The notes beneath the pieces were generated by a model. The model worked only from the letters and a program-made list of their open reading frames with translations. It was not told the origin of the DNA and did not search any database. From Coriaria nepalensis (taxonomy: Eukaryota; Streptophyta; Magnoliopsida; Cucurbitales; Coriariaceae), in NCBI GenBank assembly GCA_027186245.1, contig CP114481.1, positions 43,493,501-43,557,500 on the forward strand: DNA of 64,000 nt. The letters run 5' to 3'. A program made the translations under genes and the position numbers. This document shows positions 8,924 to 32,860 of this stretch, in pieces (the first letter of the stretch is position 1; the number at the start of each line of letters is the position of its first letter).

Positions 8924-9362
8924 AAAGATTTTAAGGTTCAACGAATGCACACTTTGCTTGCATTGATCATTTGCAAATTATGCACAAAACTTGTGTTAGT
9001 AGTGCAAAAATAGAATTCGTTCGACTTGCTTTGAAATAAGTTATTGACTTGAAATGACTCATTGAAATGATTGTAAGGTTAAACGAATGCACACTTTCCT
9101 TGCATTGATCATTTGCAAGTTATGCACAAAACTTGTGTTTGTAGTGCAAAAATAAAATGCGTTTGACTTGCTTTGAAAGAAGATATTGAGTTGAAACGAC
9201 TCATTGAAATGATTTTAAGGTTAAACGAATGGACACTTTCCTTGCAATGATCATTTGCAAGTTATGCACAAAACTTGAGTTTGTAGTGCAAAAAAAGAAT
9301 GCGTTCGACTTGCTTTGAAATCAGTTATTGACTTGAAATGACTCATTGACTTGAAATGACTC
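8924..9362. repeat. Three satellite monomers between two higher-order blocks
   Basis: Ordinary left-domain monomers, including an AAAAAAGAATGCG variant near 9,290. The stretch ends in a two-unit 18-bp micro-repeat. Nothing but satellite is seen. Confidence 0.8.
9327..9362. repeat. 18-bp micro-tandem repeat, 2 units
   Basis: The unit ATTGACTTGAAATGACTC, single in normal monomers, occurs twice in a row. It is preceded by GAAATCAGTT where other monomers have GAAATAAGTT. This monomer is 18 bp longer than usual. Confidence 0.9.
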
Positions 9363-12300
9363 ATTGAAATGATTTTAAGGTTAAACGAATGCACACTTTC
9401 CTTGCATTGATCATTTGCAAGTTACGCACAAAAGTTGTGTTTGTAGTGAAAAAGTAGAATTCGTTCGAATTGCTTTGAAATAAGTTATTGACTTGAAATG
9501 ACTCATTGAAATGATTTTAAGGTTAAACGAATGCACACTTTCCTTGCATTGATCATTTGCAAGTTATGCACAAAAGTTGTGTTTGTAGTGAAAAAATAGA
9601 ATTCGTTCGAATTGCTTTGAAAGAAGATATTGACTTGTAATGACTCATTGAAATGATTGTAAAGTTAAACGAATGCACACTTTGCTTGCATTGATCATTT
9701 GCAAGTTATGCACAAAACTTGTGTTTGTAATGCAAAAACAGAATGCGTTTGACTTGCCTTGAAAGAAGATATTGAGTTGAAATGACTCATTGAAAAGATT
9801 TTAAGGTTCAACGAATGCACACTTTCCTTGCATTGATTATTTGCAAGCTATGCACAAAACTTGAGTTTGTAGTGCAAAAATAGAATGCGTTCGACTTGCT
9901 TTGAAATACGTTATTGACTTGGAATGACTCATTGAAATGATTGTAAGGTTAAACGAATGCACACTTTCCTTGCATTGATCATTTGCAAGTTATGCACAAA
10001 ACTTGTGTTTGTAGTGCAAAAATAGAATGCGTTTGACTTGCTTTGAAAGAAGATATTGAGTTGAAATGACTCATTGAAACGATTTTAAGGTTAAACGAAT
10101 GGACACTTTCCTTGCAATGATCATTTGCAAGTTATGCACAAAACTTGAGTTTGTAGTGCAAAAATAGAATGCGTTCGACTTGCTTTGAAATAAGTTATTG
10201 ACTTGAAATGACTCATAGAAATGATTTTAAGGTTAAACGAATGCACACTTTCCCCGCATTGATCATTTGCAACTTATGCACAAAAGTTGTGTTTGTAGTG
10301 CAAAAATAGAATTCGTCCGACTTGCTTTGAAATAAGTTATTGACCTGAAATGACTCATTGAAATGATTTTAAGTTTAAACGAATGCACACTTTCCTTGCA
10401 TTGATCATTTGCAACTTATGCACAAAAGTTGTGTTTGTAGTGAAAAAGTAGAATTCGTTCGAATTGCTTTGAAAGAAGATATTGAGTTGAAATGACTCAT
10501 TGAAATTATATTAAGGTTAAACGAATGGAAACTTTCCTTGTAATGATCATTTGCAAGTTATGCACCAACCTTCTGTTAGTAGTGCAAAAATAGAATTCGT
10601 TCCACTTGCTTTGAAATATGTTATTGACTTGGAATCACTCATTGAAATGATTGTAAGGTTAAACGAATGCACACTTTCCTTGCATTGATCATTTGCAAGT
10701 TATGCACAAAAGTTGTGTTCGTAGTGCAAAAATAGAATTCGTTCGAGTGCCTTTGAAATAAGTTATTGACTTGAAATGACTCATTGAAATGATTTTAAGG
10801 TTAAACGAATGGACACTTTCCTTGCAATGATCATTTGCAGGTTATGCACAAAACTTGAGTTTGTAGTGCAAAAATAGAATGCGTTCGACTTGCTTTGAAA
10901 TAAGTTATTGACTTGAAATGACTTGTTGAAATGATTTTAAGGTTAAACGAATGCACACTTTCCTTGCATTGATCATTTGCAACTTATGCACAAAAGTTGT
11001 GTTTGTAGTGAAAAAGTAGAATTCGTTCGAATTGTTTTGAAATAAGTTATTGACTTGAAATGACTCATTGAAATGATTTTAAGGTTAAACGAATGCATAC
11101 TTTCCTTGCATTGATCATTTGCCAGTTATGCACAAAAGTTGTGTTTGTAGTGAAAAAATAGAATTCGTTCGAATTGCTTTGAAAGAAGATATTGACTTGT
11201 AAAGACTCATTGAAATGATTGTAAAGTTAAACGAATGCACACTTTGCTTGCATTGATCATTTGCAAGTTATGCACAAAACTTGTGTTTGTAATGCAAAAA
11301 TAGAATGCGTTTGACTTGCCTTGAAAGAAGATATTGAGTTGAAATGACTCATTGAAAAGATTTTAAGGTTCAACAAATGCACACTTTCCTTGCATTGATT
11401 ATTTGCAAGCTATGCACAAAACTTGTGTTTCTAGTGGAAAAATAGAATTCGTTCGACTTGCTTTGAAATAAGTTATTGACTTGAAATGACTCATTGAAAT
11501 GATTGTAAGGTTAAACGAATGCACACTTTCCTTGCATTGATCATTTGCAAGTTATGCACAAAACTTGTGTTTGTAGTGCAAAAATAGAATGCGTTTGACT
11601 TGCTTTGAAAGAAGATATTGAGTTGAAATGACTCATTGAAATGATTTCAAGGTTAAACGAATGGACACTTTCCTTGCAATGATCATTTGCAAGTTATGCA
11701 CAAAACTTGAGTTTGTAGTGCAAAAATAGAATGCGTTCGACTTGCTTTGAAATAAGTTATTGACTTGAAATGACTCATTGAAATGATTTTAAGGTTAAAC
11801 GAATGCACACTTTCCTTGCATTGATCATTTGCAACTTATGCACAAAACTTGTGTTTGTAGTGCAAAAATAGAATGCGTTCGACTTGCTTTGAAATAAGTT
11901 ATTGACTTGAAATGACTCATTGAAATGATTTTAAGGTTAAACGAATGCACACTTTCCTTGCATTGATCATTTGCAACTTATGCACAAAACTTGTGTTTGT
12001 AGTGCAAAAATAGAATTCGTCCGACTTGGTTTGAAATAAGTTATTGACCTGAAATGACTCATTGAAATGATTTTAAGTTTAAACGAATGCACACTTTCCT
12101 TGCATTGATCATTTGCAACTTATGCACCAAAGTTGTGTTTGTAGTGAAAAAGTAGAATTCGTTCGAATTGCTTTGAAATAAGTTATTGACCTGAAATGAC
12201 TCATTGAAATGATTTTAAGGTTAAACGAATGCACACTTTCCTTGCATTGATCATTTGCAAGTTATGCACAAAAGTTGTGTTCGTAGTGCAAAAATAGATT

Positions 12301-13076: not shown

Positions 13077-15544
13077 ACGAATGCACACTTTCCTTGCATT
13101 GATCATTTGCAAGTTATGCACAAAAGTTGTGTTTGTAGTGAAAAAATAGAATTCGTTCGAATTGCTTGGAAAGAAGATATTGACTTGTAATGACTCATTG
13201 AAATGATTGTAAAGTTAAACGAATGCACACTTTGCTTGCTTTGATCATTTGCAAGTTATGCACAAAACTTGTGTTTGTAATGCAAAAATAGAATGCATTT
13301 GACTTGCCTTGAAAGAAGATATTGAGTTGAAATGACTCATTGAAAAGATTTTAAGGTTCAACGAATGCACACTTTCCTTGCATTGATTATTTGCAAGCTA
13401 TGAACAAAACTTGTGTTTGTAGTGGAAAAATAGAATTCGTTCGACTTGCTTTGAAATAAGTTATTGACTTGAAATGATTCATTGAAATGATTGTAAGGTT
13501 AAACGAATGCACATTTTCCTTGCATTGATCATTTGCAAGTTATGCACAAAACTTGTGTTTGTAGTGCAAAAATAGAATGCGTTTGACTTGCTTTGAAAGA
13601 CGATATTGAGTTGAAATGACTCATTGAAATGATTTTAAGGTTAAACGAATGGACACTTTCCTTGCAATGATCATTTGCAAGTTATGCACAAAACTTGAGT
13701 TTGTAGTGCAAAAATAGAATGCGTTCGACTTGCTTTGAAATAAGTTATTGACTTGAAATGACTCATTGAAATGATTGTAAGGTTAAACGAATGCACATTT
13801 TCCTTGCATTGATTATTTGCAAGTTATGCACAAAACTTGTGTTTGTAGTGCAAAAATAGAATGCGTTTGACTTGCTTTGAAAGAAGATATTGAGTTGAAA
13901 TGACTCATTGAAATGATTTTAAGGTTAAACGAATGGCCACTTTCCTTGCAATGATCATTTGCAAGTTATGCACAAAACTTGAGTTTGTAGTGCAAAAATA
14001 GAATGCGTTCGACTTGCTTTGAAATAAGTTATTGACTTGAAATGACTCATTGAAATGATTGTAAGGTTAAACGAATGCACATTTTCCTTGCATTGATCAT
14101 TCGCAAGTTATGCACAAAACTTGTGTTTGTAGTGCAAAAATAGAATGCGTTTGACTTGCTTTGAAAGAAGATATTGAGTTGAAATGACTCATTGAAATGA
14201 TTTTAAGGTTAAACGAATGGACACTTTCCTTGCAATGATCATTTGCAAGTTATGCACAAAACTTGAGTTTGTAGTGCAAAAATAGAATGCGTTCGACTTG
14301 CTTTGAAATCAGTTATTGACTTGAAATGACTCATTGACTTGAAATGACACATTGACTTGAAATGACTCATTGACTTGAAATGACTCATTGAAATGATTTT
14401 AAGGTTAAATGAATGCACACTTTCCTTGCATTGATCATTTGCAACTTATGCACAAAACTTGTGTTTGTAGTGCAAAAATAGAATGCGTTTGACTTGCTTT
14501 GAAAGAAGATATTGAGTTGAAATGACTCATTGAAATGATTTTAAGGTTAAACGAATGGACACTTTCCTTGCAATGATCATTTGCAAGTTATGCACAAAAC
14601 TTGAGTTTGTAGTGCAAAAATAGAATTCGTTCGACTGGCTTTGAAATATGTTATTGACTTGAAATCACTCATTGAAATGATTGTAAGGTTAAACGAATGC
14701 ACACTTTCCTTGCATTGATCATTTGCAAGTTATGCACAAAAGTTGTGTTCGTAGTGCAAAAATAGAATTCGTTCGAGTGCCTTTGAAATAAGTTATTGAC
14801 TTGAAATGACTCATTGAAATGATTTTAAGGTTAAACGAATGCACACTTTCCTTGCAATGATCATTTGCAAGTTATGCACAAAACTTGAGTTTGTAGTGCA
14901 AAAATAGAATTCGTTCGACTTGCTTTGAAATATGTTATTGACTTGAAATCACTCATTGAAATGATTGTAAGGTTAAACGAATGCACACTTTCCTTGCATT
15001 GATCATTTGCAAGTTATGCACAAAAGTTCTGTTCGTAGTGCAAAAATAGAATTCGTTCGAGTGCCTTTGAAATAAGTTATTGACTTGAAATGACTCATTG
15101 AAAAGATTTTAAGGTTCAACAAATGCACACTTTGCTTGCATTGATCATTTGCAAATTATGCACAAAACTTGTGTTAGTAGTGCAAAAATAGAATTCGTTC
15201 GACTTGCTTTGAAATATGTTAAAGATTTGAAATCACTCATTGAAATAATTATAAGGTTAAACGAATGCACACTTTCCTTGCATTGATCATTTGCAAGTTA
15301 TGCACAAAACTTGTGTTTGTAGTGCAAAAATAGAATGCGTTTGACTTGCTTTGAAAGAAGATATTGAGTTGACATGACTCATTGAAATGATTTTAAGGTT
15401 AAACGAATGGACACTTTCCTTGCATTGATGATTTGCAAGTTATGCACAAAACTTGTGTTTGTAGTGCAAAAATAGATTGCGTTCGACTTGCTTTGAAATA
15501 AGTTATTGACTTGAAATGACTCATTGAAATGATTTTAAGGTTAA
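13077..15544. repeat. 15-mer-family HOR, copy 1 (2,468 bp)
   Basis: The copy runs from the monomer before GAATTGCTTGGAAAG (13,161) to the equivalent point at 15,545. Order of markers: TTGACTTGTAATG, TGCCTTGAAAG, GCTATGAACAAAAC, three 284-bp dimers, a four-unit 18-bp repeat, CGACTGGC, GTTCGAGTGCC, AAAGTTCTGTTCG, GTTAAAGATTTG, ATTGATGATTTG and AATAGATTGCG. Its length is 17 monomers plus 54 bp. Confidence 0.85.
14315..14386. repeat. 18-bp micro-tandem repeat, 4 units
   Basis: Four units of ATTGACTTGAAATGACTC, the second ending ACAC. GAAATCAGTT precedes them. The host monomer is 54 bp longer than usual. Confidence 0.93.
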
Positions 15545-17728
15545 ACGAATGCACACTTTCCTTGCATTGATCATTTGCAAGTTATGCACAAAAGTTGTGT
15601 TTGTAGTGAAAAAATAGAATTCGTTCGAATTGCTTGGAAAGAAGATATTGACTTGTAATGACACATTGAAATGATTGTAAAGTTAAACGAATGCACACTT
15701 TGCTTGCATTGATCATTTGCAAGTTATGCACAAAACTTGTGTTTGTAATGCAAAAATAGAATGCGTTTGACTTGCCTTGAAAGAAGATATTGAGTTGAAA
15801 TGACTCATTGAAAAGATTTTAAGGTTCAACGAATGCACACTTTCCTTGCATTGATTATTTGCAAGCTATGAACAAAACTTGTGTTTGTAGTGGAAAAATA
15901 GAATTCGTTCGACTTGCTTTGAAATAAGTTATTGACTTGAAATGATTCATTGAAATGATTGTAAGGTTAAACGAATGCACATTTTCCTTGCATTGATCAT
16001 TTGCAAGTTATGCACAAAACTTGTGTTTGTAGTGCAAAAATAGAATGCGTTTGACTTGCTTTGAAAGAAGATATTGAGTTGAAATGACTCATTGAAATGA
16101 TTTTAAGGTTAAACGAATGGACACTTTCCTTGCAATGATCATTTGCAAGTTATGCACAAAACTTGAGTTTGTAGTGCAAAAATAGAATGCGTTCGACTTG
16201 CTTTGAAATAAGTTATTGACTTGAAATGACTCATTGAAATGATTGTAAGGTTAAACGAATGCACATTTTCCTTGCATTGATCATTCGCAAGTTATGCACA
16301 AAACTTGTGTTTGTAGTGCAAAAATAGAATGCGTTTGACTTGCTTTGAAAGAAGATATTGAGTTGAAATGACTCATTGAAATGATTTTAAGGTTAAACGA
16401 ATGGACACTTTCCTTGCAATGATCATTTGCAAGTTATGCACAAAACTTGAGTTTGTAGTGCAAAAATAGAATGCGTTCGACTTGCTTTGAAATCAGTTAT
16501 TGACTTGAAATGACTCATTGACTTGAAATGACACATTGACTTGAAATGACTCATTGACTTGAAATGACTCATTGAAATGATTTTAAGGTTAAATGAATGC
16601 ACACTTTCCTTGCATTGATCATTTGCAACTTATGCACAAAACTTGTGTTTGTAGTGCAAAAATAGAATTCGTTCGACTTGCTTTGAAATAAGTTATTGAC
16701 TTGAAATGACTCATTGAAATGATTGTAAGGTTAAACGAATGCACATTTTCCTTGCATTGATCATTTGCAAGTTATGCACCAAACTTGTGTTAGTAGTGCA
16801 AAAATAGAATTCGTTCGACTGGCTTTGAAATATGTTATTGACTTGAAATCACTCATTGAAATGATTGTAAGGTTAAACGAATGCACACTTTCCTTGCATT
16901 GATCATTTGCAAGTTATGCACAAAAGTTGTGTTCGTAGTGCAAAAATAGAATTCGTTCGAGTGCCTTTGAAATAAGTTATTGACTTGAAATGACTCATTG
17001 AAATGATTTTAAGGTTAAACGAATGCACACTTTCCTTGCAATGATCATTTGCAAGTTATGCACAAAACTTGAGTTTGTAGTGCAAAAATAGAATTCGTTC
17101 GACTTGCTTTGAAATATGTTATTGACTTGAAATCACTCATTGAAATGATTGTAAGGTTAAACGAATGCACACTTTCCTTGCATTGATCATTTGCAAGTTA
17201 TGCACAAAAGTTCTGTTCGTAGTGCAAAAATAGAATTCGTTCGAGTGCCTTTGAAATAAGTTATTGACTTGAAATGACTCATTGAAAAGATTTTAAGGTT
17301 CAACAAATGCACACTTTGCTTGCATTGATCATTTGCAAATTATGCACAAAACTTGTGTTAGTAGTGCAAAAATAGAATTCGTTCGACTTGCTTTGAAATA
17401 TGTTAAAGATTTGAAATCACTCATTGAAATAATTATAAGGTTAAACGAATGCACACTTTCCTTGCATTGATCATTTGCAAGTTATGCACAAAACTTGTGT
17501 TTGTAGTGCAAAAATAGAATGCGTTTGACTTGCTTTGAAAGAAGATATTGAGTTGACATGACTCATTGAAATGATTTTAAGGTTAAACGAATGGACACTT
17601 TCCTTGCATTGATGATTTGCAAGTTATGCACAAAACTTGTGTTTGTAGTGCAAAAATAGATTGCGTTCGACTTGCTTTGAAATAAGTTATTGACTTGAAA
17701 TGACTCATTGAAATGATTTTAAGGTTAA
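15545..17728. repeat. 15-mer-family HOR, copy 2 (2,184 bp)
   Basis: Same marker order as copy 1, with two rather than three 284-bp dimers (starting near 15,961 and 16,245) and a four-unit 18-bp repeat. Its length is 15 monomers plus 54 bp, exactly 284 bp shorter than copy 1. Confidence 0.87.
16499..16570. repeat. 18-bp micro-tandem repeat, 4 units
   Basis: Same position in the HOR and same ACAC variant in unit 2 as at 14,315, so it was carried along when the HOR was copied. Confidence 0.93.
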
Positions 17729-20586
17729 ACGAATGCACACTTTCCTTGCATTGATCATTTGCAAGTTATGCACAAAAGTTGTGTTTGTAGTGAAAAAATA
17801 GAATTCGTTCGAATTGCTTGGAAAGAAGATATTGACTTGTAATGACACATTGAAATGATTGTAAAGTTAAACGAATGCACACTTTGCTTGCATTGATCAT
17901 TTGCAAGTTATGCACAAAACTTGTGTTTGTAATGCAAAAATAGAATGCGTTTGACTTGCCTTGAAAGAAGATATTGAGTTGAAATGACTCATTGAAAAGA
18001 TTTTAAGGTTCAACGAATGCACACTTTCCTTGCATTGATTATTTGCAAGCTATGAACAAAACTTGTGTTTGTAGTGGAAAAATAGAATTCGTTCGACTTG
18101 CTTTGAAATAAGTTATTGACTTGAAATGATTCATTGAAATGATTGTAAGGTTAAACGAATGCACATTTTCCTTGCATTGATCATTTGCAAGTTATGCACA
18201 AAACTTGTGTTTGTAGTGCAAAAATAGAATGCGTTTGACTTGCTTTGAAAGAAGATATTGAGTTGAAATGACTCATTGAAATGATTTTAAGGTTAAACGA
18301 ATGGACACTTTCCTTGCAATGATCATTTGCAAGTTATGCACAAAACTTGAGTTTGTAGTGCAAAAATAGAATGCGTTCGACTTGCTTTGAAATAAGTTAT
18401 TGACTTGAAATGACTCATTGAAATGATTGTAAGGTTAAACGAATGCACACTTTCCTTGCATTGATTATTTGCAAGTTATGCACAAAACTTGTGTTTGTAG
18501 TGCAAAAATAGAATGCGTTTGACTTGCTTTGAAAGAAGATATTGAGTAGAAATGACTCATTGAAATGATTTTAAGGTTAAACGAATGGACACTTTCCTTG
18601 CAATGATCATTTGCAAGTTATGCACAAAACTTGAGTTTGTAGTGCAAAAATAGAATGCGTTCGACTTGCTTTGAAATAAGTTATTGACTTGAAATGACTC
18701 ATTGAAATGATTGTAAGGTTAAACGAATGCACATTTTCCTTGCATTGATCATTCGCAAGTTATGCACAAAACTTGTGTTTGTAGTGCAAAAATAGAATGC
18801 GTTTGACTTGCTTTGAAAGAAGATATTGAGTTGAAATGACTCATTGAAATGATTTTAAGGTTAAACGAATGGACACTTTCCTTGCAATGATCATTTGCAA
18901 GTTATGCACAAAACTTGAGTTTGTAGTGCAAAAATAGAATGCGTTCGACTTGCTTTGAAATCAGTTATTGACTTGAAATGACTCATTGACTTGAAATGAC
19001 TCATTGAAATGATTTTAAGGTTAAATGAATGCACACTTTCCTTGCATTGATCATTTGCAACTTATGCACAAAACTTGTGTTTGTAGTGCAAAAATAGAAT
19101 TCGTTCGACTTGCTTTGAAATAAGTTATTGACTTGAAATGACTCATTGAAATGATTGTAAGGTTAAACGAATGCACATTTTCCTTGCATTGATCATTTGC
19201 AAGTTATGCACCAAACTTGTGTTTGTAATGCAAAAATAGAATGCGTTTGACTTGCCTTGAAAGAAGATATTGAGTTGAAATGACTCATTGAAAAGATTTT
19301 AAGGTTCAACGAATGCACACTTTCCTTGCATTGATTATTTGCAAGCTATGAACAAAACTTGTGTTTGTAGTGGAAAAATAGAATTCGTTCGACTTGCTTT
19401 GAAATAAGTTATTGACTTGAAATGATTCATTGAAATGATTGTAAGGTTAAACGAATGCACATTTTCCTTGCATTGATCATTTGCAAGTTATGCACAAAAC
19501 TTGTGTTTGTAGTGCAAAAATAGAATGCGTTTGACTTGCTTTGAAAGAAGATATTGAGTTGAAATGACTCATTGAAATGATTTTAAGGTTAAACGAATGG
19601 ACACTTTCCTTGCAATGATCATTTGCAAGTTATGCACAAAACTTGAGTTTGTAGTGCAAAAATAGAATTCGTTCGACTGGCTTTGAAATATGTTATTGAC
19701 TTGAAATCACTCATTGAAATGATTGTAAGGTTAAACGAATGCACACTTTCCTTGCATTGATCATTTGCAAGTTATGCACAAAAGTTGTGTTCGTAGTGCA
19801 AAAATAGAATTCGTTCGAGTGCCTTTGAAATAAGTTATTGACTTGAAATGACTCATTGAAATGATTTTAAGGTTAAACGAATGCACACTTTCCTTGCAAT
19901 GATCATTTGCAAGTTATGCACAAAACTTGAGTTTGTAGTGCAAAAATAGAATTCGTTCGACTTGCTTTGAAATATGTTATTGACTTGAAATCACTCATTG
20001 AAATGATTGTAAGGTTAAACGAATGCACACTTTCCTTGCATTGATCATTTGCAAGTTATGCACAAAAGTTCTGTTCGTAGTGCAAAAATAGAATTCGTTC
20101 GAGTGCCTTTGAAATAAGTTATTGACTTGAAATGACTCATTGAAAAGATTTTAAGGTTCAACAAATGCACACTTTGCTTGCATTGATCATTTGCAAATTA
20201 TGCACAAAACTTGTGTTAGTAGTGCAAAAATAGAATTCGTTCGACTTGCTTTGAAATATGTTAAAGATTTGAAATCACTCATTGAAATAATTATAAGGTT
20301 AAACGAATGCACACTTTCCTTGCATTGATCATTTGCAAGTTATGCACAAAACTTGTGTTTGTAGTGCAAAAATAGAATGCGTTTGACTTGCTTTGAAAGA
20401 AGATATTGAGTTGACATGACTCATTGAAATGATTTTAAGGTTAAACGAATGGACACTTTCCTTGCATTGATGATTTGCAAGTTATGCACAAAACTTGTGT
20501 TTGTAGTGCAAAAATAGATTGCGTTCGACTTGCTTTGAAATAAGTTATTGACTTGAAATGACTCATTGAAATGATTTTAAGGTTAA
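17729..20586. repeat. 15-mer-family HOR, copy 3 (2,858 bp, internally rearranged)
   Basis: Length is 20 monomers plus 18 bp. After three dimers and a two-unit 18-bp repeat the order jumps back: TGCCTTGAAAG and GCTATGAACAAAAC appear a second time near 19,250-19,350, before CGACTGGC at about 19,674. This is what an unequal exchange inside the HOR would leave. Confidence 0.85.
18967..19002. repeat. 18-bp micro-tandem repeat, 2 units
   Basis: Two units after GAAATCAGTT. Either two units were lost from the four-unit state or this is an older state, since 9,327-9,362 has the same form. Confidence 0.92.
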
Positions 20587-23455
20587 ACGAATGCACACTT
20601 TCCTTGCATTGATCATTTGCAAGTTATGCACAAAAGTTGTGTTTGTAGTGAAAAAATAGAATTCGTTCGAATTGCTTGGAAAGAAGATATTGACTTGTAA
20701 TGACACATTGAAATGATTGTAAAGTTAAACGAATGCACACTTTGCTTGCATTGATCATTTGCAAGTTATGCACAAAACTTGTGTTTGTAATGCAAAAATA
20801 GAATGCGTTTGACTTGCCTTGAAAGAAGATATTGAGTTGAAATGACTCATTGAAAAGATTTTAAGGTTCAACGAATGCACACTTTCCTTGCATTGATTAT
20901 TTGCAAGCTATGAACAAAACTTGTGTTTGTAGTGGAAAAATAGAATTCGTTCGACTTGCTTTGAAATAAGTTATTGACTTGAAATGATTCATTGAAATGA
21001 TTGTAAGGTTAAACGAATGCACATTTTCCTTGCATTGATCATTTGCAAGTTATGCACAAAACTTGTGTTTGTAGTGCAAAAATAGAATGCGTTTGACTTG
21101 CTTTGAAAGAAGATATTGAGTTGAAATGACTCATTGAAATGATTTTAAGGTTAAACGAATGGACACTTTCCTTGCAATGATCATTTGCAAGTTATGCACA
21201 AAACTTGAGTTTGTAGTGCAAAAATAGAATGCGTTCGACTTGCTTTGAAATAAGTTATTGACTTGAAATGACTCATTGAAATGATTGTAAGGTTAAACGA
21301 ATGCACATTTTCCTTGCATTGATTATTTGCAAGTTATGCACAAAACTTGTGTTTGTAGTGCAAAAATAGAATGCGTTTGACTTGCTTTGAAAGAAGATAT
21401 TGAGTTGAAATGACTCATTGAAATGATTTTAAGGTTAAACGAATGGACACTTTCCTTGCAATGATCATTTGCAAGTTATGCACAAAACTTGAGTTTGTAG
21501 TGCAAAAATAGAATGCGTTCGACTTGCTTTGAAATAAGTTATTGACTTGAAATGACTCATTGAAATGATTGTAAGGTTAAACGAATGCACATTTTCCTTG
21601 CATTGATCATTCGCAAGTTATGCACAAAACTTGTGTTTGTAGTGCAAAAATAGAATGCGTTTGACTTGCTTTGAAAGAAGATATTGAGTTGAAATGACTC
21701 ATTGAAATGATTTTAAGGTTAAACGAATGGACACTTTCCTTGCAATGATCATTTGCAAGTTATGCACAAAACTTGAGTTTGTAGTGCAAAAATAGAATGC
21801 GTTCGACTTGCTTTGAAATAAGTTATTGACTTGAAATGACTCATTGAAATGATTGTAAGGTTAAACGAATGCACATTTTCCTTGCATTGATTATTTGCAA
21901 GTTATGCACAAAACTTGTGTTTGTAGTGCAAAAATAGAATGCGTTTGACTTGCTTTGAAAGAAGATATTGAGTTGAAATGACTCATTGAAATGATTTTAA
22001 GGTTAAACGAATGGACACTTTCCTTGCAATGATCATTTGCAAGTTATGCACAAAACTTGAGTTTGTAGTGCAAAAATAGAATGCGTTCGACTTGCTTTGA
22101 AATAAGTTATTGACTTGAAATGACTCATTGAAATGATTGTAAGGTTAAACGAATGCACATTTTCCTTGCATTGATCATTCGCAAGTTATGCACAAAACTT
22201 GTGTTTGTAGTGCAAAAATAGAATGCGTTTGACTTGCTTTGAAAGAAGATATTGAGTTGAAATGACTCATTGAAATGATTTTAAGGTTAAACGAATGGAC
22301 ACTTTCCTTGCAATGATCATTTGCAAGTTATGCACAAAACTTGAGTTTGTAGTGCAAAAATAGAATGCGTTCGACTTGCTTTGAAATCAGTTATTGACTT
22401 GAAATGACTCATTGACTTGAAATGACTCATTGACTTGAAATGACTCATTGACTTGAAATGACTCATTGAAATGATTTTAAGGTTAAATGAATGCACACTT
22501 TCCTTGCATTGATCATTTGCAACTTATGCACAAAACTTGTGTTTGTAGTGCAAAAATAGAATTCGTTCGACTTGCTTTGAAATAAGTTATTGACCTGAAA
22601 TGACTCATTGAAATGATTGTAAGGTTAAACGAATGCACATTTTCCTTGCATTGATCATTTGCAAGTTATGCACCAAACTTGTGTTAGTAGTGCAAAAATA
22701 GAATTCGTTCGACTGGCTTTGAAATATGTTATTGACTTGAAATCACTCATTGAAATGATTGTAAGGTTAAACGAATGCACACTTTCCTTGCATTGATCAT
22801 TTGCAAGTTATGCACAAAAGTTGTGTTCGTAGTGCAAAAATAGAATTCGTTCGAGTGCCTTTGAAATAAGTTATTGACTTGAAATGACTCATTGAAATGA
22901 TTTTAAGGTTAAACGAATGCACACTTTCCTTGCAATGATCATTTGCAAGTTATGCACAAAACTTGAGTTTGTAGTGCAAAAATAGAATTCGTTCGACTTG
23001 CTATGAAATATGTTATTGACTTGAAATCACTCATTGAAATGATTGTAAGGTTAAACGAATGCACACTTTCCTTGCATTGATCATTTGCAAGTTATGCACA
23101 AAAGTTCTGTTCGTAGTGCAAAAATAGAATTCGTTCGAGTGCCTTTGAAATAAGTTATTGACTTGAAATGACTCATTGAAAAGATTTTAAGGTTCAACAA
23201 ATGCACACTTTGCTTGCATTGATCATTTGCAAATTATGCACAAAACTTGTGTTAGTAGTGCAAAAATAGAATTCGTTCGACTTGCTTTGAAATATGTTAA
23301 AGATTTGAAATCACTCATTGAAATAATTATAAGGTTAAACGAATGCACACTTTCCTTGCATTGATCATTTGCAAGTTATGCACAAAACTTGTGTTTGTAG
23401 TGCAAAAATAGAATGCGTTTGACTTGCTTTGAAAGAAGATATTGAGTTGACATGA
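20587..23455. repeat. 15-mer-family HOR, copy 4 (five dimers, truncated)
   Basis: Five 284-bp dimers (near 21,001, 21,285, 21,569, 21,853 and 22,137) precede a four-unit 18-bp repeat. The GTTAAAGATTTG marker here lies 3,036 bp after that of copy 3, which is 21 monomers plus 54 bp. The copy breaks off near 23,455, before the ATTGATGATTTG and AATAGATTGCG monomers. Confidence 0.82.
22393..22464. repeat. 18-bp micro-tandem repeat, 4 units, all ACTC
   Basis: Four units, none with the ACAC change seen at 14,315 and 16,499. The four-unit state therefore arose separately here or was homogenised. Confidence 0.92.
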
Positions 23456-23488
23456 CTCTTTGAAAAGATTTTAAGGTTCAACAAATGC

Positions 23489-24357: not shown

Positions 24358-26094
24358 ATCATTTGCAACTTATGCACAAAACTTGTGTTTGTAGTGCAAA
24401 AATAGAATTCGTCCGACTTGCTCTGAAATAAGTTATTGACCTGAAATGACTCATTGAAATGATTTTAAGTTTAAACGAATGCACACTTTCCTTGCATTAA
24501 TCATTTGCAACTTATGCACAAAAGTTGTGTTTGTAGTGCAAAAATAGAATTCGTTCGACTTGCTTTGAAATAAGTTATTGACTTGAAATGACTCATTGAA
24601 ATGATTGTAAGGTTAAACGAATGCACACTTTCCTTGCATTGATCACTTGCAAGTTATGCACAAAAGTTCTGTTCGTAGTGCAAAAATAGAATTCGTTCGA
24701 CTGGCTTTGAAATATGTTATTGACTTGAAATCACTCATTGAAATGATTGTAAGGTTAAACGAATGCACACTTTCCTTGCATTGATCATTTGCAAGTTATG
24801 CACAAAAGTTGTGTTCGTAGTGCAAAAATAGAATTCGTTCGAGTGCCTTTGAAATAAGTTATTGACTTGAAATGACTCATTGAAATGATTTTAAGGTTAA
24901 ACGAATGCACACTTTCCTTGCAATGATCATTTGCAAGTTATGCACAAAACTTGAGTTTGTAGTGCAAAAATAGAATTCGTTCGACTTGCTTTGAAATATG
25001 TTATTGACTTGAAATCACTCATTGAAATGATTGTAAGGTTAAACGAATGCACACTTTCCTTGCATTGATCATTTGCAAGTTATGCACAAAAGTTCTGTTC
25101 GTAGTGCAAAAATAGAATTCGTTCGAGTGCCTTTGAAATAAGTTATTGACTTGAAATGACTCATTGAAAAGATTTTAAGGTTCAACAAATGCACACTTTG
25201 CTTGCATTGATCATTTGCAAATTATGCACAAAACTTGTGTTAGTAGTGCAAAAATAGAATTCGTTCGACTTGCTTTGAAATATGTTAAAGATTTGAAATC
25301 ACTCATTGAAATAATTATAAGGTTAAACGAATGCACACTTTCCTTGCATTGATCATTTGCAAGTTATGCACAAAACTTGTGTTTGTAGTGCAAAAATAGA
25401 ATGCGTTTGACTTGCTTTGAAAGAAGATATTGAGTTGACATGACTCATTGAAATGATTTTAAGGTTAAACGAATGGACACTTTCCTTGCATTGATGATTT
25501 GCAAGTTATGCACAAAACTTGTGTTTGTAGTGCAAAAATAGATTGCGTTCGACTTGCTTTGAAATAAGTTATTGACTTGAAATGACTCATTGAAATGATT
25601 TTAAGGTTAAACGAATGCACACTTTCCTTGCATTGATCATTTGCAAGTTACGCACAAAAGTTGTGTTTGTAGTGAAAAAATAGAATTCGTTCGAATTGCT
25701 TTGAAAGAAGATATTGACTTGTAATGACTCATTGAAATGATTGTAAAGTTAAACGAATGCACACTTTGCTTGCATTGATCATTTGCAAGTTATGCACAAA
25801 ACTTGTGTTTGTAATGCAAAAATAGAATGCGTTTGACTTGCCTTGAAAGAAGATATTGAGTTGAAATGACTCTTTGAAACGATTTTAAAGTTAAACGAAT
25901 GGACACTTTCCTTGCAATGATCATTTGCAAGTTATGCACAAAACTTGTGTTTGTAGTGAAAAAATGGAATTCATTCGAATTGCTTTGAAAGAAGATATTG
26001 ACTTGAAATGACTCATTGAAATGATTTTAAGGTTAAACGAATGGACACTTTCCTTGCATTGATCATTTGCAACTTATGCACAAAACTTGTGTTT
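24358..26094. repeat. Mosaic stretch with a fifth partial copy of the 15-mer HOR
   Basis: From about 24,680 to 25,650 the markers CGACTGGC, GTTCGAGTGCC, AAAGTTCTGTTCG, GTTAAAGATTTG (25,277) and AATAGATTGCG (25,541) follow in the same order as in the 13-23.5 kb HOR, 1,988 bp after those of copy 4. The flanks carry GTCCGACTTGCTCTG monomers (24,411 and 26,115, 1,704 bp apart) of the kind that build the next block. Confidence 0.78.
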
Positions 26095-28082
26095 GTAGTG
26101 CAAAAATAGAATTCGTCCGACTTGCTCTGAAATAAGTTATTGACCTGAAATGACTCATTGAAATGATTTTAAGTTTAAACGAATGCACACTTTCCTTGCA
26201 TTAATCATTTGCAACTTATGCACAAAAGTTGTGTTTGTAGTGAAAAAGTAGAATTCGTTCGAATTGCTTTGAAAGAAGATATTGAGTTGAAAGGACTCAT
26301 TGAAATTATATTAAGGTTAAACGAATGGAAACTTTCCTTGCAATGATCATTTGCAAGTTATGCACCAAACTTGTGTTAGTAGTGCAAAAATAGAATTCGT
26401 TCGACTTGCTTTGAAATATGTTATTGACTTGAAATCACTCATTGAAATGATTGTAAGGTTAAACGAATGCACACTTTCCTTGCATTGATCATTTGCAAGT
26501 TATGCACAAAAGTTCTGTTCGTAGTGCAAAAATAGAATTCGTTCGAGTGCCTTTGAAATAAGTTATTGACTTGAAATGACTCATTGAAAAGATTTTAAGG
26601 TTCAACGAATGCACACTTTGCTTGCATTGATCATTTGCAAATTATGCACAAAACTTGTGTTAGTAGTGCAAAAATAGAATTCGTTCGACTTGATTTGAAA
26701 TATGTTAAAGATTTGAAATCACTCATTGAAATAATTGTAAGGTTAAACGACTGCACACTTTCCTTGCATTGATCATTTGCAAGTTATGCACAAAACTTGT
26801 GTTTGTAGTGCAAAAATAGAATGCGTTTGACTTGCTTTGAAAGAAGATATTGAGTTGACATGACTCATTGAAATGATTTTAAGGTTAAACGAATGGACAC
26901 TTTCCTTGCAATGATCATTTGCATGTTATGCACAAAACTTGTGTTAGTAGTGCAAAAATAGAATACGTTCGACTTGCTTTGAAATATGTTATTGATTTGA
27001 AATCACTCATTGAAATGATTGTAAGGTTAAACGAATGCACACTTTACTTGCATTCATCATTTGCAAGTTATGCACAAAAGTTGTGTTCGTAGTGCAAAAA
27101 TAGAATTCGTTCGAGTGCCTTTGAAATAAGTTATTGACTTGAAATGACTCATTGAAAAGATTTTAAGGTTCAACGAATGCACACTTTGCTTGCATTGATC
27201 ATTTGCAAGTTATGCACAAAACTTGTGTCAGTAGTGCAAAAATAGAATTCGTTCGACTTGCTTTGAAATATGTTATTTACTTAAAATCACTCATTGAAAT
27301 GATTGTAAGGTTAAACGACTGCACACTTTCCTTGCATTGATCATTTGCAAGTTATGCACAAAACTTGTGTTTGTAGTGCAAAAATAGAATGCGTTCGAAT
27401 TGCTTTGAAAGAAGATATTGACTTGAAATGACTCATTGGAATGATTTTAAGGTTAAACGAATGCACACTGTCCTTGCATTAATAATTTGCAAGTTATGCA
27501 CAAAACTTGTGTTTGTAGTGCAAAAATAGAATGCGTTCGACTTGCTTTGAAATAAGTTATTGACTTGAAATGACTCATTGAAATGATTTTAAGGTTAAAT
27601 GAATGCACACTTTCCTTGCATTGATCATTTGCAAGTTATGCACAAAACTTGTGTTTGTAGTGAAAAAATAGAATTCGTTCGAATTGCTTTGAAAGAAGAT
27701 ATTGATATGAAATGACTCATTGAAATGATTTTAAGGTTCAACGAATGCACACTTTCCTTGCATTGATCATTTGCAACTTATGCACAAAACTTGTGTTTGT
27801 AGTGCAAAAATAGAATTCGTCCGACTTGCTCTGAAATAAGTTATTGACCTGAAATGACTCATTGAAATGATTTTAAGTTTAAACGAATGCACACTTTCCT
27901 TGCATTAATCATTTGCAACTTATGCACAAAAGTTGTGTTTGTAGTGAAAAAGTAGAATTCGTTCGAATTGCTTTGAAAGAAGATATTTAGTTGAAAGGAC
28001 TCATTGAAATTATATTAAGGTTAAACGAATGGAAACTTTCCTTGCAATGATCATTTGCAAGTTATGCACCAAACTTGTGTTA
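26095..28082. repeat. 14-mer HOR, copy 1 (1,988 bp)
   Basis: Markers in order: GTCCGACTTGCTCTG, TTGAAAGGACTC, AAAGTTCTGTTCG, CTTGATTTGAAATATG with GTTAAAGATTTG (26,691), TTTGCATGTTATGC, TTTACTTGCATTCATC, GTGTCAGTAGTG, CATTGGAATG (27,435), CACTGTCC, ATTAATAATTTGC and TTGATATGAAATG. Equivalent markers recur 1,988 bp on. Confidence 0.85.
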
Positions 28083-30638
28083 GTAGTGCAAAAATAGAAT
28101 TCGTCCGACTTGCTTTGAAATAAGTTATTGACCTGAAATGACTCATTGAAATGATTTTAAGTTTAAACGAATGCACACTTTCCTTGCATTGATCATTTGC
28201 AACTTATGCACAAAAGTTGTGTTTGTAGTGAAAAAGTAGAATTCGTTCGAATTGCTTTGAAAGAAGATATTGAGTTGAAAGGACTCATTGAAATTATATT
28301 AAGGTTAAACGAATGGAAACTTTCCTTGCAATGATCATTTGCAAGTTATGCACCAAACTTGTGTTAGTAGTGCAAAAATAGAATTTGTTCGACTTGCTTT
28401 GAAATATGTTATTGACTTGAAATCACTCATTGAAATGATTGTAAGGTTAAACGAATGCACACTTTCCTTGCATTGATCATTTGCAAGTTATGCACAAAAG
28501 TTCTGTTCGTAGTGCAAAAATAGAATTCGTTCGAGTGCCTTTGAAATAAGTTATTGACTTGAAATGACTCATTGAAAAGATTTTAAGGTTCAACGAATGC
28601 ACACTTTGCTTGCATTGATCATTTGCAAATTATGCACAAAACTTGTGTTAGTAGTGCAAAAATAGAATTCGTTCGACTTGATTTGAAATATGTTAAAGAT
28701 TTGAAATCACTCATTGAAATAATTGTAAGGTTAAACGAATGCACACTTTCCTTGCATTGATCATTTGCAAGTTATGCACAAAACTTGTGTTTGTAGTGCA
28801 AAAATAGAATGCGTTTGACTTGCTTTGAAAGAAGATATTGAGTTGACATGACTCATTGAAATGATTTTAAGGTTAAACGAATGGACACTTTCCTTGCAAT
28901 GATCATTTGCATGTTATGCACAAAACTTGTGTTAGTAGTGCAAAAATAGAATACGTTCGACTTGCTTTGAAATATGTTATTGACTTGAAATCACTCATTG
29001 AAATGATTGTAAGGTTAAACGAATGCACACTTTACTTGCATTGATCATTTGCAAGTTATGCACAAAAGTTCTGTTCGTAGTGCAAAAATAGAATTCGTTC
29101 GAGTGCCTTTGAAATAAGTTATTGACTTGAAATGACTCATTGAAAAGATTTTAAGGTTCAACGAATGCACACTTTGCTTGCATTGATCATTTGCAAATTA
29201 TGCACAAAACTTGTGTTAGTAGTGCAAAAATAGAATTCGTTCGACTTGATTTGAAATATGTTAAAGATTTGAAATCACTCATTGAAATAATTGTAAGGTT
29301 AAACGAATGCACACTTTCCTTGCATTGATCATTTGCAAGTTATGCACAAAACTTGTGTTTGTAGTGCAAAAATAGAATGCGTTTGACTTGCTTTGAAAGA
29401 AGATATTGAGTTGACATGACTCATTGAAATGATTTTAAGGTTAAACGAATGGACACTTTCCTTGCAATGATCATTTGCATGTTATGCACAAAACTTGTGT
29501 TAGTAGTGCAAAAATAGAATACGTTCGACTTGCTTTGAAATATGTTATTGATTTGAAATCACTCATTGAAATGATTGTAAGGTTAAACGAATGCACACTT
29601 TACTTGCATTCATCATTTGCAAGTTATGCACAAAAGTTGTGTTCGTAGTGCAAAAATAGAATTCGTTCGAGTGCCTTTGAAATAAGTTATTGACTTGAAA
29701 TGACTCATTGAAAAGATTTTAAGGTTCAACGAATGCACACTTTGCTTGCATTGATCATTTGCAAGTTATGCACAAAACTTGTGTCAGTAGTGCAAAAATA
29801 GAATTCGTTCGACTTGCTTTGAAATATGTTATTTACTTAAAATCACTCATTGAAATGATTGTAAGGTTAAACGACTGCACACTTTCCTTGCATTGATCAT
29901 TTGCAAGTTATGCACAAAACTTGTGTTTGTAGTGCAAAAATAGAATGCGTTCGAATTGCTTTGAAAGAAGATATTGACTTGAAATGACTCATTGGAATGA
30001 TTTTAAGGTTAAACGAATGCACACTGTCCTTGCATTAATAATTTGCAAGTTATGCACAAAACTTGTGTTTGTAGTGCAAAAATAGAATGCGTTCGACTTG
30101 CTTTGAAATAAGTTATTGACTTGAAATGACTCATTGAAATGATTTTAAGGTTAAATGAATGCACACTTTCCTTGCATTGATCATTTGCAAGTTATGCACA
30201 AAACTTGTGTTTGTAGTGAAAAAATAGAATTCGTTCGAATTGCTTTGAAAGAAGATATTGATATGAAATGACTCATTGAAATGATTTTAAGGTTCAACGA
30301 ATGCACACTTTCCTTGCATTGATCATTTGCAACTTATGCACAAAACTTGTGTTTGTAGTGCAAAAATAGAATTCGTCCGACTTGCTCTGAAATAAGTTAT
30401 TGACCTGAAATGACTCATTGAAATGATTTTAAGTTTAAACGAATGCACACTTTCCTTGCATTAATCATTTGCAACTTATGCACAAAAGTTGTGTTTGTAG
30501 TGAAAAAGTAGAATTCGTTCGAATTGCTTTGAAAGAAGATATTTAGTTGAAAGGACTCATTGAAATTATATTAAGGTTAAACGAATGGAAACTTTCCTTG
30601 CAATGATCATTTGCAAGTTATGCACCAAACTTGTGTTA
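28083..30638. repeat. 14-mer HOR, copy 2, enlarged to 18 monomers (2,556 bp)
   Basis: Same order as copy 1, with one four-monomer stretch present twice (28,470-29,606). The CATTGGAATG marker consequently falls 2,556 bp after that of copy 1, exactly 18 monomers. Confidence 0.85.
28470..29606. repeat. 568-bp (4-mer) duplication inside HOR copy 2
   Basis: AAAGTTCTGTTCG (about 28,498 and 29,066) and CTTGATTTGAAATATG (28,679 and 29,247) each recur 568 bp apart, which is four monomers. The second set ends with the CATTCATC and ATTGATTTGAAATC variants typical of copy 1. Confidence 0.85.
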
Positions 30639-32860
30639 GTAGTGCAAAAATAGAATTCGTCCGACTTGCTTTGAAATAAGTTATTGACCTGAAATGACTC
30701 ATTGAAATGATTTTAAGTTTAAACGAATGCACACTTTCCTTGCATTGATCATTTGCAACTTATGCACAAAAGTTGTGTTTGTAGTGAAAAAGTAGAATTC
30801 GTTCGAATTGCTTTGAAAGAAGATATTGAGTTGAAAGGACTCATTGAAATTATATTAAGGTTAAACGAATGGAAACTTTCCTTGCAATGATCATTTGCAA
30901 GTTATGCACCAAACTTGTGTTAGTAGTGCAAAAATAGAATTTGTTCGACTTGCTTTGAAATATGTTATTGACTTGAAATCACTCATTGAAATGATTGTAA
31001 GGTTAAACGAATGCACACTTTCCTTGCATTGATCATTTGCAAGTTATGCACAAAAGTTCTGTTCGTAGTGCAAAAATAGAATTCGTTCGAGTGCCTTTGA
31101 AATAAGTTATTGACTTGAAATGACTCATTGAAAAGATTTTAAGGTTCAACGAATGCACACTTTGCTTGCATTGATCATTTGCAAATTATGCACAAAACTT
31201 GTGTTAGTAGTGCAAAAATAGAATTCATTCGATTTGCTTTGAAATATGTTAAAGATTTGAAATCACTCATTGAAATAATTGTAAGGTTAAACGAATGCAC
31301 ACTTTCCTTGCATTGATCATTTGCAAGTTATGCACAAAACTTGTGTTTGTAGTGCAAAAATAGAATGCGTTTGACTTGCTTTGAAAGAAGATATTGAGTT
31401 GACATGACTCATTGAAATGATTTTAAGGTTAAACGAATGGACACTTTCCTTGCAATGATCATTTGCATGTTATGCACAAAACTTGTGTTAGTAGTGCAAA
31501 AATAGAATACGTTCGACTTGCTTTGAAATATGTTATTGATTTGAAATCACTCATTGAAATGATTGTAAGGTTAAACAAATGCACACTTTCCTTGCATTCA
31601 TCATTTGCAAGTTATGCACAAAAGTTGTGTTCGTAGTGCAAAAATAGAATTCGTTCGAGTGCCTTTGAAATAAGTTATTGACTTGAAATGACTCATTGAA
31701 AAGATTTTAAGGTTCAACGAATGCACACTTTGCTTGCATTGATCATTTGCAAGTTATGCACAAAACTTGTGTCAGTAGTGCAAAAATAGAATTCGTTCGA
31801 CTTGCTTTGAAATATGTTATTTACTTGAAATCACTCATTGAAATGATTGTAAGGTTAAACGAATGCACACTTTCCTTGCATTGATCATTTGCAAGTTATG
31901 CACAAAACTTGTGTTTGTAGTGCAAAAATAGAATGCGTTCGAATTGCTTTGAAAGAAGATATTGACTTGAAATGACTCATTGGAATGATTTTAAGGTTAA
32001 ACGAATGCACACTGTCCTTGCATTACTAATTTGCAAGTTATGCACAAAACTTGTGTTTGTAGTGCAAAAATAGAATGCGTTCGACTTGCTTTGAAATAAG
32101 TTATTGACTTGAAATGACTCATTGAAATGATTTTAAGGTTAAATGAATGCACACTTTCCTTGCATTGATCATTTGCAAGTTATGCACAAAACTTGTGTTT
32201 GTAGTGAAAAAATAGAATTCGTTCGAATTGCTTTGAAAGAAGATATTGATATGAAATGACTCATTGAAATGATTTTAAGGTTCAACGAATGCACACTTTC
32301 CTTGCATTGATCATTTGCAACTTATGCACGAAACTTGTGTTTGTAGTGCAAAAATAGAATTCGTCCGACTTGCTCTGAAATAAGTTATTGACCTGAAATG
32401 ACTCATTGAAATGATTTTAAGTTTAAACGAATGCACACTTTCCTTGCATTAATCATTTGCAACTTATGCACGAAAGTTGTGTTTGTAGTGAAAAAGTAGA
32501 ATTCGTTCGAATTGCTTTGAAAGAAGATATTGAGTTGAAAGGACTCATTGAAATTATATTAAGGTTAAACGAATGGAAACTTTCCTTGCAATGATCATTT
32601 GCAAGTTATGCACCAAACTTGTGTTAGTAGTGCAAAAATAGAATTCGTCCGACTTGCTTTGAAATAAGTTATTGACCTGAAATGACTCATTGAAATGATT
32701 TTAAGTTTAAACGAATGCACACTTTCCTTGCATTGATCATTTGCAACTTATGCACAAAAGTTGTGTTTGTAGTGAAAAAGTAGAATTCGTTCGAATTGCT
32801 TTGAAAGAAGATATTGAGTTGAAAGGACTCATTGAAATTATATTAAGGTTAAACGAATGC
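30639..32860. repeat. 14-mer HOR, copy 3 and start of copy 4
   Basis: Copy 3 covers about 30,639-32,626, and GTCCGACTTG at 30,659 recurs at 32,647, 1,988 bp on. Copy 4 stops after about 230 bp, at a shortened monomer. Copy 3 has its own changes, such as GAATTCATTCGATTTGC near 31,225 and TGCACGAAAC near 32,330. Confidence 0.85.

What the first reader, a model, noticed from the sequence alone, without database searches (positions are those of the whole stretch)
13077..23455. HOR copies that differ by whole numbers of an inner 284-bp dimer
Four successive copies of one HOR measure 2,468, 2,184 and 2,858 bp, with a 3,036-bp spacing for the fourth. Relative to the 15-mer plus 54 bp, copy 1 has one more 284-bp dimer (3 against 2) and the fourth three more (5 against 2). 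The third is a rearranged 20-mer with a backward jump. This is a repeat inside a repeat inside a repeat (monomer, dimer, HOR), each level changing by itself. It is a snapshot of ongoing unequal exchange and could serve as a copy-number marker between individuals.
Basis: seen in the sequence. Interest (0 to 1): 0.75.

Follow-up and report, generated by a model that had tools for sequence, protein, structure and literature searches.

The report
Nested repeat island in plant satellite
In a huge block of repeated DNA on a chromosome of what is almost certainly the shrub Coriaria nepalensis, four neighbouring long repeats differ mainly in how many copies they hold of a small inner pair of units, a readable but ordinary trace of recent DNA exchange between misaligned repeats.

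Summary
Observation confirmed. The window is one 142-bp satellite, matching the published Coriaria nepalensis tandem repeat (679,177 copies, chr01-03). Decomposition into 455 monomers gives the claimed lengths exactly: 2,468, 2,184 and 2,858 bp plus a 3,036-bp spacing, with 3, 2, 3 and 5 inner dimers. Copies 2 and 4 differ at 8 of 2,042 bp; different monomers inside a copy average 92%.

The interpretation needs correcting. SNV markers name the dimers: copy 1 abc, copy 2 ac, copy 3 abc, copy 4 a-bc-bc. The baseline is therefore probably a 17-mer with three dimers, not the 15-mer: copy 2 lost one dimer, copy 4 gained two in one 568-bp duplication, and copy 3 reads as two units with losses of 8 and 6 monomers. 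That 17-mer is intact in no copy. An 18-bp repeat inside one monomer is a fourth level.

The island is local: its 13* marker has 5 exact hits in the 316-Mb haplotype, all in this window. Dimer steps are no rule of the array (40 of 75 length changes elsewhere are even). Likely mechanism: unequal homologous exchange or conversion, as presumed for human HOR variants. "Ongoing" and "marker between individuals" could not be tested.

The parts
13085..15552 (+). HOR copy 1: 15 16 24 [a 13][b 13][c 13*] 26|9 35' 12 35 36 37 9' 38; 17 monomers + 54 bp, 2,468 bp
15553..17736 (+). HOR copy 2: 15 16 24 [a 13][c 13*] 26 39 12 35 36 37 9' 38; 15 monomers + 54 bp, 2,184 bp
17737..20594 (+). HOR copy 3: 15 16 24 [a 13][b 13][c 13*] 26 40 24 a 35' 12 35 36 37 9' 38; 20 monomers + 18 bp, 2,858 bp
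20595..23458 (+). HOR copy 4: 15 16 24 [a 13][b 13][c 13][b 13][c 13*] 26 39 12 35 36 37 and most of 9'; ends in chimeric monomer 41
   Evidence: first difference from copy 2 at the right edge at 23459
24483..25760 (+). Partial fifth copy: 26 45 12 35 36 37 9' 38 15; slots 12 to 38 identical to copies 1, 2 and the second half of copy 3
13511..14416 (+). Dimer tract of copy 1 (abc)
15979..16600 (+). Dimer tract of copy 2 (ac)
18163..19032 (+). Dimer tract of copy 3 (abc; its b monomer lacks C3T and has T101A)
21021..22494 (+). Dimer tract of copy 4 (a bc bc); the two b-13-c blocks are identical over 426 bp
14303..14391 (+). 18-bp tandem repeat in monomer 13* of copy 1 (+54 bp)
16487..16575 (+). 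18-bp tandem repeat in monomer 13* of copy 2 (+54 bp)
18955..19007 (+). 18-bp tandem repeat in monomer 13* of copy 3 (+18 bp)
22381..22469 (+). 18-bp tandem repeat in monomer 13* of copy 4 (+54 bp)
19175..19316 (+). Junction monomer 40 in copy 3: 39 on the left, 16 on the right, exact, breakpoint 38-49
19601..19742 (+). Junction monomer 35' in copy 3: 13 (breakpoint 50-68) or 35 (50-78) on the left, 39 on the right, exact; identical to 14559-14700 in copy 1
14417..14558 (+). Junction monomer in copy 1: 26 on the left, 9a on the right, exact, breakpoint 29-68
23347..23488 (+). Monomer 41, right edge of copy 4: 9' on the left, 36 on the right, 1 mismatch
24625..24766 (+). Monomer 45 in the partial fifth copy: 36 on the left, 39 or 35' on the right, 1 mismatch

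Best explanation
A small island (about 12.7 kb: four copies and a partial fifth) of a locally amplified higher-order repeat inside the 142-bp heterochromatic satellite of, almost certainly, Coriaria nepalensis. The ancestral unit was probably a 17-mer, 15-16-24-[a-13]-[b-13]-[c-13*]-26-39-12-35-36-37-9'-38, 2,468 bp with three near-identical dimers. Homologous recombination between misaligned copies (unequal sister exchange, or conversion) removed the b dimer in copy 2, duplicated the b-c pair in copy 4, and turned a two-unit stretch into the 20-mer of copy 3 by losing 8 and 6 monomers. Slippage probably changed the 18-bp repeat inside monomer 13*. Shown: lengths, monomer strings, dimer markers, fit of the junction monomers. 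Inferred: ancestral state, order of events, type of recombination, lack of a function of its own.
For: Exact lengths and strings. Copies far more alike than their monomers: copies 2 and 4 differ at 8 of 2,042 bp, 5 of them in one chimeric monomer, against 92.2% mean identity between different monomers of copy 2. Dimer markers abc / ac / abc / abcbc. The two b-13-c blocks of copy 4 are identical over 426 bp. Junction monomers 40, 35' and the 26|9 monomer fit their two parents exactly, with the outer neighbours also matching, and keep the 142-bp register. Not chance.
Against: The inferred ancestral 17-mer is intact in none of the four copies (copy 1 has 26|9 35' instead of 26 39). Its outgroup support is one SNV (T110A in monomer 15, shared by copies 2-4, absent from copy 1 and from outgroup 15s), while monomer 13* groups copies 1 and 2. 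Two-parent fits are easy to find here: of 391 full-length monomers 214 fit two parents without mismatch, 147 of them already one parent, so the chimera reading leans on the neighbours. Monomers 41 and 45 fit with one mismatch, not exactly. Exchange and conversion cannot be told apart. No reads and no second haplotype.
Confidence: 0.7

Rival explanations
1. One reading: the 15-mer with two dimers is the baseline, and copies 1, 3 and 4 gained dimers.
For: Copy 2 carries a normal 26 39 junction and no chimeric monomer. A related stretch further left (11,097-11,948: 15 16 24 9 13 26) has a single dimer, so growth in number did happen at some time.
Against: b is present in copies 1, 3 and 4; if copy 1 is the outgroup (T110A) two gains of the same b are needed against one loss. 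Copy 4 then needs +b and a bc duplication, not three dimer steps.
Confidence: 0.2
2. The dimer tract and the jumps come from replication slippage or template switching on one strand, not from exchange between chromatids.
For: The dimers are adjacent and near-identical, and the 18-bp tract (+54, +54, +18, +54) changes out of monomer register, as slippage does.
Against: Losses of 8 and 6 monomers join parents only 88% and 94% alike (17 and 9 differences of 142) with the register kept, which homologous exchange explains more easily. For the dimer steps alone the sequence cannot decide.
Confidence: 0.2
3. The length differences are an assembly or polishing effect.
For: 60 of the assembly's 62 gaps lie on chr01-03, gaps were filled with reads, and short reads were used for polishing (PMC10167230).
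Against: HiFi reads average 19 kb, longer than the island. No N in 264 kb. Copies 1, 3 and 4 carry private SNVs (for example A90C and G70A; T101A; T100C), so they are not one copy laid down several times. Copy 2 shows no private SNV in the monomers listed.
Confidence: 0.07

Closest known systems
Coriaria nepalensis 142-bp tandem repeat of chr01-03 (PMC10167230; section 6 and passages seen)
   Same: Same 142-bp length; window consensus differs from the printed one at 5 of 142 positions; assembly size and 20 contigs fit one haplotype.
   Different: The paper gives a consensus and a copy number; the words higher-order, HOR, monomer and dimer do not occur in its main text.
Human alpha-satellite HOR structural variants, e.g. 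the 13-mer form of the 16-mer D17Z1 (PMC9549924, passages seen)
   Same: Copies of one HOR that differ by whole monomers; presumed mechanisms are unequal crossover and gene conversion.
   Different: Other satellite and kingdom, very large live centromeric arrays; here four copies and a partial fifth, with no evidence of a centromere.
Cascading HORs, human chromosome 15 15-mer and 20-mer (PMC11050224, passages seen)
   Same: Monomer types recur inside one HOR unit, giving subfragments shorter than the HOR.
   Different: There 429 and 164 copies with a clear canonical form (65% and 94%); here no two of four copies have the same length or string.
HORs in non-centromeric satellite arrays of poplar and willow, Palv148 and Sar145 (PMC12046899, passages seen)
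   Same: Plant satellite of similar unit length arranged in local HOR blocks, without CENH3 peaks there.
   Different: Other sequence; nested dimers are not mentioned in the passages seen.

Membership tests
Coriaria nepalensis 142-bp satellite | Monomer sequence of the published consensus | tested here: met
   5 of 142 positions differ between consensuses; 391 full-length monomers average 92.5% to the printed one.
Higher-order repeat | Units of several divergent monomers repeated in tandem with little divergence between units | tested here: met
   98.9-99.6% between copies 1, 2 and 4 over 2,042-2,326 bp against 92.2% between monomers of copy 2; shuffles.
Cascading HOR | Some monomer types recur within one unit | tested here: met
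   Types 9, 13 and 35 recur in a unit.
Cascading HOR | A canonical unit that is the commonest copy | tested here: inconclusive
   Four copies, four different strings; the 17-mer is inferred.
Willard-type HOR | Every monomer of a unit is of a different type | tested here: not met
   Types 9, 13 and 35 recur.
Centromeric satellite | Occupied by CENH3 | not testable with these tools
   No ChIP data; no word beginning with centromer in the main text of the genome paper.
Polymorphic copy-number locus | Length differs between individuals or haplotypes | not testable with these tools
   One haplotype was reachable, no reads.

The most novel reading that the evidence does not exclude
A four-level nest (18-bp unit, monomer, dimer, HOR) at one locus, readable event by event, in which each level changes at its own rate; since its 13* marker is confined to one place in the haplotype, it could be followed in pedigrees as a natural recorder of unequal exchange in plant heterochromatin.
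Probability: 0.15. Interest if true: 0.5.

Novelty: new member of a known kind. Interest (0 to 1): 0.3.

Why it matters
It is a clean, readable case of how satellite arrays change: few enough copies and enough markers to name separate events. It also shows that this Coriaria satellite is, at least over 264 kb, a patchwork of small local HORs, which its genome paper does not describe. If the locus proves variable, its locus-specific marker would let exchange in plant heterochromatin be measured.

Tried and rejected
Tenebrio molitor: its major satellite is also 142 bp (passages of PMC10445852, PMC10742464 and PMC13192020). Dropped when the Coriaria consensus matched; the beetle sequence was not in the passages seen, so this is rejection by a better match, not by comparison.

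A general 284-bp rule: tested in 264 kb and not found. 40 of 75 collapsed lag changes are even (46 of 84 uncollapsed). Near-identical runs at even against odd lag are 25 to 19 in the window and 80 to 59 in 264 kb; such runs are not independent.

Breakpoint hot spot: of 49 junction monomers found among 1,868, 20 clean distinct ones lean to monomer positions 98-125 (uncorrected p 0.011 and 0.003 in 2 of 11 bins). Of the five junction monomers of this island four break at 29-78 and one at 104-118, so the island does not bear it out. Left as a hint. The first version of that script failed.

No Rfam family at the gathering score, no tRNA, no exact match of a 32-mer in viral contigs, longest closed ORF 109 aa.

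Genome searches for monomers 37 and 24 did not complete. Confinement to this locus therefore rests on exact 13* matches in the genome and on markers in 264 kb: 24, a and b occur only between 13.3 and 21.9 kb, but 37, 12 and 39 also occur in the neighbourhood and 38 across the 264 kb.

A search for plant HOR papers with six terms found none; one for Coriaria with repeat words was capped at 15 of 2,849 papers and told nothing.
Full report
WHAT IT IS. The window is satellite from end to end: 142-bp period, 32% GC, no break over 64 kb, and in the 264 kb around it one orientation and no N. A text search for six 14-mers of the repeat found one paper, the Coriaria nepalensis genome, which prints a 142-bp consensus found 679,177 times on its three long, heterochromatin-rich chromosomes. 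The window consensus differs from it at 5 of 142 positions. The assembly that holds the window has 316,458,532 bases in 20 contigs, and the window is C1:43,493,501-43,557,500; this fits one haplotype of that genome (620 Mb, 40 pseudochromosomes).

OBSERVATION. Alignment to the cyclic consensus gave 460 pieces, merged to 455 monomers because five monomers carry extra 18-bp units. Grouped at 3% average distance, the string from 13,085 reads: 15 16 24 [9 13]x3 9 35' 12 35 36 37 9' 38 / 15 16 24 [9 13]x2 26 39 12 35 36 37 9' 38 / 15 16 24 [9 13]x3 26 40 24 9 35' 12 35 36 37 9' 38 / 15 16 24 [9 13]x5 26 39 12 35 36 37 41. The script labels 35' like 35 and 9' like 9; I separate them by their SNVs. 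The last 13 of each tract, 13*, carries the extra 18-bp units. The lengths 2,468, 2,184, 2,858 and the spacing 3,036 are exact. Shuffles of monomer order do not give such runs.

Type-9 monomers of the dimers carry SNVs that name them: a (C3T), b (C3T, C19T), c (C3T, T23C) (positions counted from 0). Copy 1 is abc (its a has a further A90C), copy 2 ac, copy 3 abc (its b lacks C3T and has T101A), copy 4 a-bc-bc. In copy 4 the two b-13-c blocks are identical over 426 bp. The simplest history is an abc unit of 17 monomers, one dimer lost in copy 2, and one two-dimer duplication in copy 4, probably the latest event. Against this: the 17-mer is intact in no copy, the outgroup test rests on one SNV (T110A), and monomer 13* groups copies 1 and 2 instead. 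I put abc at about four in five.

Copy 3 can be written as two 17-mer units (34) minus 8 minus 6 = 20 monomers. The first loss leaves a 39|16 monomer, exact, breakpoint 38-49; the second a 13|39 (or 35|39) monomer, 35', exact. The same 35' stands in copy 1, next to a monomer that is 26 on the left and 9a on the right, exact. So copy 1 looks like the product of exchange or conversion between a normal unit and a copy-3-like one. Monomer 41 at the right edge and 45 in the partial fifth copy fit two parents with one mismatch each. A caution: with 391 full-length monomers as possible parents, 214 fit two parents without mismatch (147 of them already one parent), so the fit alone proves little; the matching neighbours carry the argument. 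The junctions keep the 142-bp register, as homologous exchange requires.

A fourth level: monomer 13* holds extra copies of an 18-bp unit, +54, +54, +18, +54 bp in copies 1-4. It ignores the monomer register; slippage is the likely cause (inference).

HOW LOCAL IT IS. The 13* marker has 5 exact hits in the 316-Mb haplotype, all in this window: four in the HOR copies and one at 9,317. In 264 kb, monomers 24, a and b occur only in the island; 37, 12 and 39 also in the neighbourhood, and 38 across the 264 kb. The surroundings hold other small HORs: a 14-mer with one extra 4-mer at 26-33 kb, an 18-mer at 79-87 kb, a 16-mer at 93-100 kb, a 46-mer at -46 to -33 kb (window coordinates). 1,081 of 1,868 monomers lie in near-identical runs of four or more. 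Steps of an even number of monomers are not preferred elsewhere: 40 of 75.

AGE. Leaving out the chimeric slot, copies 2 and 4 differ at 3 of 1,900 bp. With a plant rate of about 7e-9 per site and year (recalled, not looked up) that is of the order of 100,000 years, a minimum if conversion has erased differences. Recent is shown, ongoing is not.

MECHANISM AND FUNCTION. Unequal crossover and gene conversion are the presumed causes of homogenisation and variation in human alpha-satellite HORs (PMC9549924, passages) and fit here. Nothing points to a function of its own: no closed ORF above 109 aa, no RNA family, no tRNA. The main text of the genome paper has no word beginning with centromer.

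NOVELTY. HOR variants, units with repeated monomer types (PMC11050224, passages) and HORs in non-centromeric plant satellites (PMC12046899, passages) are in print. I found no description of HORs in the Coriaria repeat: the genome paper lacks the words, and of the 4 papers holding Coriaria, chromosome and satellite none is on this repeat by its title. Papers outside the held library were not searched. It is a new, well-resolved member of a known kind.

Noticed in passing
26187-32860: A second HOR, a 14-mer, in which one of three copies has an extra 4-monomer block (spacings 14, 18, 14 monomers): another unit that changes by a whole inner block.
   Followed up: partly
57026-59155: A hexamer (types 143 144 145 146 123 147) in two full copies and a third cut after two monomers.
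   Followed up: no
34970-63158: Thirteen monomers shortened to 95 bp by the same 51-bp deletion, between 35.0 and 63.2 kb.
   Followed up: no
9233-9392: A 13* monomer with +18 bp outside the HOR, the only other exact hit of that marker in the haplotype.
   Followed up: partly
L006-L025 (100 kb on each side of the window): The flanks are a patchwork of small HORs of other lengths (18-mer, 16-mer, 46-mer).
   Followed up: partly
L006-L025 and window: Twenty clean junction monomers lean to monomer positions 98-125, where the 18-bp motif lies (uncorrected p 0.011 and 0.003 in 2 of 11 bins). Weak.
   Followed up: partly
1-64000: The genome paper assigns 280 Mb (45.2%) to Mutator transposons with a distribution like this array and says the motif lies inside them. 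The window looks like pure satellite, so much of that may be mis-annotation (inference).
   Followed up: no
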